This document shows positions 19,789-43,036 of a stretch of 64,000 bases of DNA, piece by piece. The notes under the pieces were generated by a model. That model was not told where the DNA came from, did not search any database, and worked only from the letters and a program-made list of their open reading frames with translations. This DNA comes from Fibrobacter sp. UWH6 (GTDB lineage Bacteria; Fibrobacterota; Fibrobacteria; Fibrobacterales; Fibrobacteraceae), in contig NZ_FRAX01000002.1 of the NCBI RefSeq assembly GCF_900142465.1, forward strand, positions 1-64,000, in the 5' to 3' direction. Numbering within the stretch: the stretch's first letter is position 1; every line of letters begins with the position of its first letter. A program made the position numbers and the translations under genes.

Positions 19789-19825
19789 TCCGCGCCTCGC
19801 GAATCAAATCGCCTCCCCTAAAAAA

Positions 19826-20043
19826 GGCGGTGGAAATTGACTAAATCAGGTCTTTTCCACCGCCTTTTTATTATGTTATATTAAATCACACCATAAAAAT
19901 CAACCGTTCGCCAACCATATTGGGTGATTTAAGGACAAAATCACGTTCCAAAACACCTCTGCACCCCCTATTCTCGCCGCCAACCACAAACAAAATAAAG
20001 AAAAGGCAGTGGAGACCTCGCTAAAATAGCCGTTTCCACCGCC
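19826..20043. repeat. Paired-hairpin element, copy 1 (218 bp)
   Basis: The outer hairpins lie at 19826-19864 and 20005-20043. Each has GGCRGTGGA arms pairing with TTTCCACCGCC, an inner 4-bp stem and a following T run. The spacer contains CCAACCATATTGGGTGATTTAA-like sequence. Copy 2 at 21118-21335 has the same length. The first hairpin also serves as the argD terminator. The gap 20044-20226 before the next gene has only a CTGA/TCAG stem and an AACCAGA/TCTGGTT inverted repeat. Confidence 0.88.
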
Positions 20044-20226
20044 TTTTTTGCACACAGTCCAAGCTTTTCGCGCAGCCGCGCCTTATTTTCTATATTTTCA
20101 TTCGCATTATTATACATTCCCTATCTGATTACTCAGATTTTTTATTATATCGTCCCCCTAAATTTTCGCTACAACCAGACTTTAGAATTCTGGTTTTCAT
20201 CAAAAGCGTCATAACAAAGGATTATC

Positions 20227-21090
20227 ATGGAAAATGTATTAATACATTTGTCCAAAGACAGTGTGCTGTCTTCACTTCAGAAAAGAGTTGAAGAACTTGA
20301 CTCCGCAATAAGACAACTCGGGATTTGTTTAAAAAATTCTCCAACAGAAAAACTCAAGGTTTCACCACACAATGGAACATATCAGTATTATCTCATATCC
20401 TCAGAAACCGGTAAAAAAGGAAAATTCATTTCAAAAAAAGAATGGAACATTGCAGAACGAATCGCCCAACGCGATTACGATACCAAACTACTAGAGCAAT
20501 TAATCAACCAACGAACGGCATTACAGACATGCATCGCTACATATCACCCAGAAATTGCTGAAACTTTTTGGTCTGAACAACATCCAGGACGTCAAAAGCT
20601 AACACAACCCAGAATCATTTCTGATGATGAATACGCCAATGAATGGCAACTTAAAGAATTCTGCGGTCGTCCTTTTGACAAGACGGATCATGAGCTAAAA
20701 ACTGCTAGAGGTGAACGGGTCCGATCCAAGTCAGAAGTCATCATCGCAAACGCCCTAGATCATTTCAATGTGCCATATCGATATGAATTCCCGCATAAGT
20801 TGAAAATCACCCAACAATCTATCAAAGGAAAGTACAATTCAAAACGCATCAATATCTTTCCGGACTTCACCTGCCTCAACAAAAAAACTCGAAAAGAAAT
20901 CATATGGGAACACTTCGGGTTAATTGATGACAGCTCCTATGCACAGACAATGGCCTTGAAGCTAGAGGAATATCAGCAGAATGGTTTCTTCCTTGGAGAT
21001 AATTTCATCATGACCACAGAAACTAGTGAACATCCCTTAAGTTATGAAACCGTTGAAAAGCTTATCCGGCGATATCTATGCGAATCGTGA
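20227..21090 (+). CDS. PD-(D/E)XK nuclease-like protein bracketed by direct repeats
   Basis: A 287-residue soluble protein. The N-terminal 110 residues are helical and charged. From about residue 165 it has Arg-Ser-Lys-Ser-Glu-Val-Ile-Ile-Ala-Asn-Ala-Leu, Pro-Tyr-Arg-Tyr-Glu-Phe-Pro, Phe-Pro-Asp-Phe-Thr and Ile-Trp-Glu-His-Phe-Gly. This spacing fits the restriction-endonuclease-like core (Glu, Asp, Glu-x-His/Lys). The gene is visibly more A+T-rich than its neighbours and its codon choice differs, suggesting transfer. It lies alone between two 218-bp direct repeats. An AAAGGA site lies seven bases before the ATG. Substrate is unknown; no methylase or partner is adjacent. Confidence 0.6.
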   Translation: MENVLIHLSKDSVLSSLQKRVEELDSAIRQLGICLKNSPTEKLKVSPHNGTYQYYLISSETGKKGKFISKKEWNIAERIAQRDYDTKLLEQLINQRTALQTCIATYHPEIAETFWSEQHPGRQKLTQPRIISDDEYANEWQLKEFCGRPFDKTDHELKTARGERVRSKSEVIIANALDHFNVPYRYEFPHKLKITQQSIKGKYNSKRINIFPDFTCLNKKTRKEIIWEHFGLIDDSSYAQTMALKLEEYQQNGFFLGDNFIMTTETSEHPLSYETVEKLIRRYLCES

Positions 21091-21117
21091 GATTGTAAGA
21101 CGTTTTACCGCAAAAAA

Positions 21118-21335
21118 GGCGGTGGAAATTGACCAAATCAGGTCTTTTCCACCGCCTTTTTGTTACGTTATATTAAACTGTGTCACGAAAACCAACCGAT
21201 CGCCAACCATATTGGGTGATTTAAGGGCAAAATCACGTTCCAAAACACCTCTGCACCCCCTATTCTCGCCGCCAACCACAAACAAAATAAAGGAAAGGCA
21301 GTGGAAACCTCGCTAAAATAGCCGTTTCCACCGCC
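21118..21335. repeat. Paired-hairpin element, copy 2 (218 bp)
   Basis: Direct repeat of 19826-20043 with the same hairpins (21118-21156 and 21297-21335) and only scattered differences. In the first hairpin the inner stem is GACC/GGTC here and GACT/GGTC in copy 1. In the second, GTGGAAAC here is GTGGAGAC in copy 1. Both changes keep pairing if the element is RNA (G-U wobble). Confidence 0.88.
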
Positions 21336-21369
21336 TTTTTCCCACTCAAATTCCAACTTTTCGTGGAAT

Positions 21370-42761: not shown

Positions 42762-42788
42762 CTCGTCCGAAAGGACAGGGGGCAAAAA

Positions 42789-42995
42789 GGCAGTGGAAAA
42801 GAGAAATTCCACTCCATTTCCACCGCCTTTCTTTTAATTTGTATCAAACAAACTCTCAAAACAAGACAAATTTTACCTCAAACAGGGGTAAAAATGCAGA
42901 AAAACACAGCCTTACCCCACCTCTGGCCCCCAATTTTGCGAACGAACAAACAAAAAGGCAGTGGAAAATCGGTTCATACGCCCTTTTCCACCGCC
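42789..42995. repeat. Paired-hairpin element, copy 3 (207 bp, diverged)
   Basis: Hairpins at 42789-42827 and 42957-42995 have the same GGCAGTGGAAA/TTTCCACCGCC arms as the copies at 19826 and 21118, with T runs after them. The spacer keeps a recognisable CACCTCTG-CCCCC-ATTnT-CG and AACAAACAAA pattern before the second hairpin, but is otherwise changed. It lies between the transporter gene and tRNA-Leu. Confidence 0.8.
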
Positions 42996-43036
42996 TTTTT
43001 TCATTACCTCCGCGAGGCATCTCCATCTCCAAGCAT

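What the first reader, a model, noticed from the sequence alone, without database searches (positions are those of the whole stretch)
19826..21335. Nuclease-like gene bracketed by 218-bp direct repeats made of paired hairpins
The A+T-rich gene (20227-21090) lies alone between two near-identical repeats of equal length. Recombination between them would remove exactly 1,292 bp, leaving one repeat between argD and the radical SAM gene. The gene has a PD-(D/E)XK-like core. This could be a homing-type or repeat-mobilised single-gene element, or a cassette captured by repeat-mediated recombination.
Basis: partly seen in the sequence, partly recalled or inferred. Interest (0 to 1): 0.68.

Follow-up and report, generated by a model that had tools for sequence, protein, structure and literature searches.

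The report
Nuclease gene with helically phased palindromes
A small nuclease gene in a rumen/gut bacterium (Fibrobacter), and its relatives in other phyla, nearly always sits beside its own set of mirror-image DNA sites spaced by whole turns of the double helix; this looks like a previously undescribed nuclease-plus-DNA-array system whose job is not yet known.

Summary
The repeats and gene are real: 237-bp direct repeats (92%, spacing 1,292 bp) bracket a 287-aa gene with a fully conserved PD-(D/E)XK core. The reading changes. Each repeat is an array of two palindromes (AGGCGGTGGA-N21-TCCACCGCCT) 179 bp (17 helical turns) apart. Across 94 Fibrobacter relatives, 81 carry such an array within 700 bp, against 0 of 107 control segments and 0 of 94 shuffles; 20 of 30 Firmicutes/Spirochaete relatives do too. 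Arms differ between nuclease lineages and track nuclease phylogeny; centres are variable in sequence but fixed in length. Spacings are multiples of 10.5 bp (R=0.92), and A+T content oscillates with the same period for 60 bp around each site: the signature of wrapped double-stranded DNA, not hairpins. Cognate arrays also lie dispersed between genes without the nuclease, up to 35 palindromes per genome. Direct repeats of at least 100 bp flank only 13 of 94 copies; empty sites hold no repeat. One array arrived in a ~600-bp conversion-like tract. I infer a nuclease that binds, wraps and probably acts at its own arrays, REPtron-like in logic but not HUH. No literature description was found. Binding is well supported by inference; cleavage and spread are not shown.

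The parts
20227..21090 (+). PD-(D/E)XK nuclease gene, 287 aa: helical/beta-hairpin N-domain (1-150) plus C-terminal nuclease domain (about 155-287)
   Evidence: ORF; core invariant in 93 homologues; AlphaFold2 pLDDT 95; PADLOC PDC-S68 C-terminal domain E=8e-23; no Pfam/NCBIfam family
20734..20913 (+). codons of the catalytic core: E170 (20734-20736), D213 (20863-20865), E228-H229 (20908-20913)
   Evidence: E170, E228, H229 in 93/93 and D213 in 92/93
19820..20056 (+). upstream copy of the array repeat
   Evidence: 92% to 21112-21348
19825..19865 (.). palindrome 1, AGGCGGTGGA-N21-TCCACCGCCT
20004..20044 (.). palindrome 2 (one mismatch), centre 179 bp = 17.0 turns from palindrome 1
21112..21348 (+). 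downstream copy of the array repeat
21117..21157 (.). palindrome 3
21296..21336 (.). palindrome 4 (one mismatch), centre 179 bp from palindrome 3
42788..42996 (.). solo two-palindrome array of the same family without nuclease (42788-42828 and 42956-42996, centres 168 bp = 16 turns), intergenic
   Evidence: not found at the orthologous intergenic region in G040

Best explanation
A two-part system: a PD-(D/E)XK nuclease and its cognate DNA arrays. SHOWN by sequence: the family is linked to arrays of 2-10 palindromes; the arm sequence is specific to the nuclease lineage; palindromes are spaced by whole helical turns; A+T content is phased over the whole array; arrays of the same type are dispersed in intergenic regions. 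INFERRED with good support: a nuclease dimer binds the two arms of each palindrome on double-stranded DNA, and neighbouring dimers on one face wrap the array into one complex. INFERRED with weak support: the bound nuclease nicks or cuts at or beside arrays (or on an array-less partner), and recombinational repair copies array and sometimes gene to other alleles, so that the pair persists as a homing- or REPtron-like selfish or semi-domesticated element. In the window a duplicated two-palindrome array brackets the gene; recombination between the copies could delete the gene and leave a solo array like the one at 42788-42996.
For: Linkage: 81/94 nuclease loci score above threshold against 0/107 control segments and 0/94 dinucleotide shuffles; 33 of 38 nuclease clusters; 20/30 loci outside Fibrobacter. 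Phasing: 126 spacings, R=0.92 at 10.5 bp; one spacing per nuclease cluster, n=27, R=0.88, p about 1e-9; dispersed arrays n=56, R=0.93; other phyla n=70, R=0.83. A+T oscillation of 10.5 bp out to 60 bp, flat in control. Copies agree at 87-91% in the arms but about 30-45% in centres and spacers. Nuclease identity against half-site similarity: Mantel r=0.53, 0/2000 permutations. Dispersed cognate palindromes, reversed-pattern control zero in all 71 genomes. Conversion-like tract: array plus about 400 bp of flank in G031 is G018-like (87-93%) inside an otherwise G110-like background. Sister-species occupied/empty site at argD|rSAM: G030 against G010 and G003.
Against: No binding, cutting or movement has been measured. 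Only one conversion-like tract was worked out, and ordinary recombination could give it. Many dispersed arrays sit at the same place in different species (e.g. L248/L249/L250; several between G037 and G057), which suits long-term maintenance more than active spread. Dispersed copies have unrelated centres and spacers, so they are not simple copies of one another. 13 of 94 nuclease loci show no array above threshold, including L147, whose own repeats the detector does not score.
Confidence: 0.45

Rival explanations
1. Chromosome-organising or regulatory protein: the former nuclease binds dispersed phased arrays to loop or wrap DNA or to regulate neighbouring genes and itself; no spread is involved.
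For: Helical phasing and wrapped-DNA signature; arrays kept at orthologous sites across species; 43 of 65 strict arrays lie upstream of the gene only.
Against: Catalytic residues are invariant, unexpected for a pure binder; several unrelated specificities per genome and patchy presence; 10 of 65 arrays are downstream only, poor for simple autoregulation.
Confidence: 0.25
2. Defence or addiction nuclease: the arrays sequester or switch off a toxic nuclease that acts on foreign DNA when released.
For: The C-domain resembles the C-terminus of PADLOC candidate PDC-S68; solitary, patchy, multi-specificity genes.
Against: Only the nuclease domain is shared with PDC-S68; no partner gene between the repeats here; dispersed arrays would be superfluous; no defence data.
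Confidence: 0.15
3. The palindromes are intrinsic terminators or RNA hairpins (for instance a type III toxin-antitoxin RNA).
For: In the window the arms are G+C-rich with A/T tracts, as in bidirectional terminators.
Against: Spacing in 10.5-bp units and phased A+T make no sense for RNA; other lineages have A+T-rich arms without T tracts; the terminator scan does not call them (its loop limit of 8 would miss such long loops, so this is weak); no Rfam family reaches its cut-off.
Confidence: 0.05
4. One reading: a cassette moved by recombination between its flanking direct repeats.
For: Repeats of 92% identity could recombine; solo arrays exist.
Against: Direct repeats of at least 100 bp in only 13/94 copies; empty argD|rSAM sites hold no repeat.
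Confidence: 0.07

Closest known systems
REPtron (TnpA_REP/RAYT with REP/BIME palindromes; PMC8266576)
   Same: One enzyme gene beside cognate palindromes; the palindromes are dispersed in intergenic DNA, often in pairs or tandem; palindromes co-evolve with the enzyme.
   Different: The enzyme is PD-(D/E)XK, not HUH/Y1; palindromes have long fixed-length centres and are helically phased on double-stranded DNA; no GTAG-type tag seen outside the arms; several nuclease genes per genome.
Free-standing homing endonucleases (PD-(D/E)XK and EDxHD types, PMC6083498)
   Same: Stand-alone nuclease, conserved core, patchy alleles with empty sister sites, one co-conversion-like tract.
   Different: Recognition sites lie beside the gene and elsewhere in multi-site phased arrays, not as a single target disrupted by the gene.
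Transposons with multi-site ends and TnsA-type nuclease (Tn7 family)
   Same: Multiple protein-binding sites; weak fold similarity of the nuclease domain to a TnsA-containing complex (E=0.09).
   Different: No partner transposase gene in the unit, no consistent two ends, no target-site duplication seen.
CRISPR arrays
   Same: Regularly spaced repeats beside a nuclease gene.
   Different: The repeat is two short arms with a variable centre; spacing varies in integer turns; the arms, not the spacers, carry the lineage-specific sequence.
PADLOC PDC-S68 C-terminal domain
   Same: Homologous nuclease domain (E=8e-23).
   Different: PDC-S68 models are about 1,200-1,270 positions long; here only the C-terminal 120 or so are shared.

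Membership tests
REPtron (RAYT-REP) | HUH/Y1 single-strand transposase | tested here: not met
   No Pfam match in the nuclease family; Y1_Tnp genes exist in G000, G018 and G034 but none in G033, G060, G055 or G030, which have arrays
REPtron (RAYT-REP) | enzyme gene adjacent to cognate palindromes | tested here: met
REPtron (RAYT-REP) | palindromes dispersed in intergenic regions | tested here: met
REPtron (RAYT-REP) | conserved GTAG-type tag next to the palindrome | tested here: not met
   Copy-to-copy identity falls to about 0.25-0.4 within 2-8 bases outside the arms
REPtron (RAYT-REP) | recognition of folded single-stranded DNA | not testable with these tools
   Helical phasing argues for double-stranded recognition
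free-standing homing endonuclease | intact nuclease core | tested here: met
free-standing homing endonuclease | occupied and empty alleles at one site in close relatives | tested here: met
   G030 against G003 and G010, flanks 91-93%
free-standing homing endonuclease | co-conversion of flanks | tested here: inconclusive
   One array tract, G031
free-standing homing endonuclease | cleaves the empty allele | not testable with these tools
   needs enzyme
insertion sequence / transposon | two defined ends and target duplication | tested here: not met
   Arrays on one side only in 53 of 65 strict cases; no duplication at the G031 insertion, local sequence replaced instead
type III toxin-antitoxin | tandem RNA repeats upstream of an RNase toxin | tested here: not met
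   10 of 65 arrays downstream only; helical phasing
known protein family | full-length match in Pfam, NCBIfam, PHROGs or PDB | tested here: not met

The most novel reading that the evidence does not exclude
An undescribed cross-phylum class of element in which a PD-(D/E)XK nuclease wraps double-stranded DNA on helically phased palindromic arrays of its own specificity and uses them to drive its own and the arrays' spread by gene conversion: a double-stranded-DNA counterpart of the RAYT-REPIN system.
Probability: 0.4. Interest if true: 0.93.

Novelty: categorically new. Interest (0 to 1): 0.85.

Why it matters
It would add a second enzyme class to the short list of proteins tied to dispersed bacterial palindromic repeats, whose dissemination mechanism is still open (PMC8266576). 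Because arm sequence, site spacing and nuclease lineage co-vary over dozens of natural pairs, it also offers a large natural catalogue of double-stranded DNA specificities for one fold, and a bacterial case of nucleosome-like sequence phasing outside the usual nucleoid proteins.

Tried and rejected
RNA-family search: only sub-threshold chance matches. Intrinsic-terminator reading: not supported, and other lineages lack terminator features. Simple direct-repeat cassette: repeats are the exception, not the rule. Hairpin-only model: abandoned once spacings proved to be multiples of 10.5 bp. My first flank-repeat script mis-oriented minus-strand loci and was redone. Nuclease remnants beside dispersed arrays: none by tblastn. 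RAYT in trans: Y1_Tnp is absent from four array-bearing genomes. Known fold for the N-domain: only weak prefoldin-like coiled-coil matches. Phage or plasmid origin: two distant phage-contig hits, no plasmid hit. Literature searches found no description; the held library lacks most subscription journals.

Full report
OBSERVATION. The 237-bp direct repeats (19820-20056 and 21112-21348, 92%, spacing 1,292) and the lone ORF 20227-21090 are as described, apart from the repeat length. The genus is Fibrobacter, judging by the titles of its nearest public records.

THE PROTEIN. 287 aa; no Pfam, NCBIfam or confident PHROG family; the C-terminal 120 aa match the C-terminus of PADLOC PDC-S68. In 93 homologues S167, K168, E170, Y186, E187, F214, W227, E228, H229, G231 and Y238 are invariant and D213 is present in 92. 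The AlphaFold2 model is confident (pLDDT 95, pTM 0.82): helix, beta-hairpin and long helix (N-domain), then an alpha/beta nuclease domain. Foldseek gives no full-length PDB match; the weak hits include restriction enzymes and a TnsA-containing complex. The N-domain alone has only weak prefoldin-like matches. N-domain identity between homologues averages 32%, nuclease domain 54%, as expected if the N-domain carries specificity (inference).

DISTRIBUTION. 40 of 101 relatives carry it, up to 7-8 matches per genome; it also occurs in Lachnospiraceae, Butyrivibrio, Treponema and Turicibacter records.

SITE. The argD|radical SAM intergenic region is variable. Seven genomes including the window's hold a homologue there (40-48% identical to the window's); others have no nuclease or other cargo. 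In G011 and G104 the homologue is also bracketed by about 214-290-bp direct repeats of different sequence. Sister species G030 (occupied) and G003/G010 (empty) share 91-93% flanks on both sides. Empty sites contain no array.

ARRAYS. Scanning all copies showed that direct repeats are only a special case (13/94). The constant feature is an array of palindromes with the same arms and centre length but different centre sequence. Strict detection: 65/94 loci against 1/105 controls. Scored detection: 81/94 against 0/107; 0/94 on dinucleotide-shuffled flanks; 33 of 38 nuclease clusters; 20/30 outside Fibrobacter. The control segments come from the argD/rSAM neighbourhoods of genomes without a nuclease there and are largely coding, hence the added shuffle control.

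HELICAL PHASING. Centre-to-centre distances fall at 52.5, 63.5, 74.5, 84.5, 95, 105.5, 117, 137, 147.5, 179, 189, 199.5, 211, 221 and 232 bp, with few exceptions: R=0.92 at 10.5 bp for 126 spacings. Arrays are related, so I repeated the test with one spacing per nuclease cluster: n=27, R=0.88, p about 1e-9. Dispersed arrays (n=56, R=0.93) and other phyla (n=70, R=0.83) agree. A+T content around 188 palindromes peaks at 0, 10-11, 22, 31, 42 and 52 bp from the centre; random positions in the same loci are flat. This is what wrapped or bent double-stranded DNA predicts; RNA or single-strand hairpins give no reason for it.

SPECIFICITY. Half-sites consist of a variable 6-9-nt core followed, in most lineages, by an inner (T)AAA. 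Half-site similarity follows nuclease identity (Mantel r=0.53; r=0.16 among pairs under 60% identical, still 0/2000 permutations). A second motif, ACAAACTAA, is shared by lineages with different arms, is about 100-fold enriched in Fibrobacter arrays, and lies 30 bp (or about 33 or 41) from a palindrome centre.

DISPERSAL. Exact palindromes of one type occur in 2-11 of 71 genomes with reversed-pattern controls at zero: up to 12 (GGGGCGTATAA), 15 (AGGACTAAAC) and 35 (GTACCTATAA) per genome; the window's type in G000 (5) and G054 (1). Those examined form mostly 2-7-site phased arrays between genes, without nuclease remnants. In G000 the solo twins are 15, 15, 16, 17, 17 and 17 turns apart. Some arrays grew by tandem duplication (about 190 bp in G033 and G018).

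GAIN BY CONVERSION. One dispersed array (G031, G018) is missing at the orthologous site in G048, G110, G008, G013, G012 and others. Against G110, G031 is about 89-95% left of the array, 59-80% for about 300-400 bp right of it, then 94-100%; against G018 it is 79-86% left, 93% in the array, 87-93% right, then 80%. A G018-like tract of about 600 bp entered a G110-like genome with its left edge at the array. This fits homing with co-conversion but is one case and fits ordinary recombination too. Other arrays are kept at orthologous sites across species, which favours long-term maintenance.

INFERENCE. Binding and wrapping of double-stranded arrays by the lineage-matched nuclease is well supported but not measured. 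Cleavage and its role are inferred from the conserved core. The logic resembles REPtrons (PMC8266576), but the catalytic class and the geometry of the sites differ, so it is not a member. Limits: most genomes are draft or metagenome-assembled, so duplicated arrays may be under-counted; loci are not fully independent; no experiment was possible.

Noticed in passing
argD|radical SAM junction, window 19789-21369; L099-L158: This intergenic region is a general hotspot: some genomes have 65-555 bp between the genes, others 2-3 kb or more of unrelated cargo.
   Followed up: partly
array spacers, e.g. L033, L197, L244: Motif ACAAACTAA (or ACAAAnTAA) enriched about 100-fold in Fibrobacter arrays, at fixed distance (30, about 33 or 41 bp) from palindrome centres, independent of the arm type; possibly a site for a common partner.
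   Followed up: partly
L284 (Lachnospiraceae) 5' flank: Ten TGGCGAAG-N24-CTTCGCCA palindromes, every 63-64 bp, upstream of a nuclease copy; could be mistaken for a CRISPR-like array.
   Followed up: partly
L248, L249, L250: AGGACTAAAC arrays kept at the same orthologous intergenic site in three species at 73-83% flank identity, suggesting selection to keep dispersed arrays.
   Followed up: no
G000 C7, C1, C5, C27 (L159-L163): Five further nuclease copies in the same genome, four with their own differently specified arrays (TGGCTGTC, TACTAACC, GGTTACTA, TACCTATA) and one (L160) with none detected.
   Followed up: partly
L101, oriented, about 2203-2263: A fragment resembling the nuclease 5' coding region lies upstream of the intact copy, suggesting repeated insertion or replacement at the site.
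   Followed up: no
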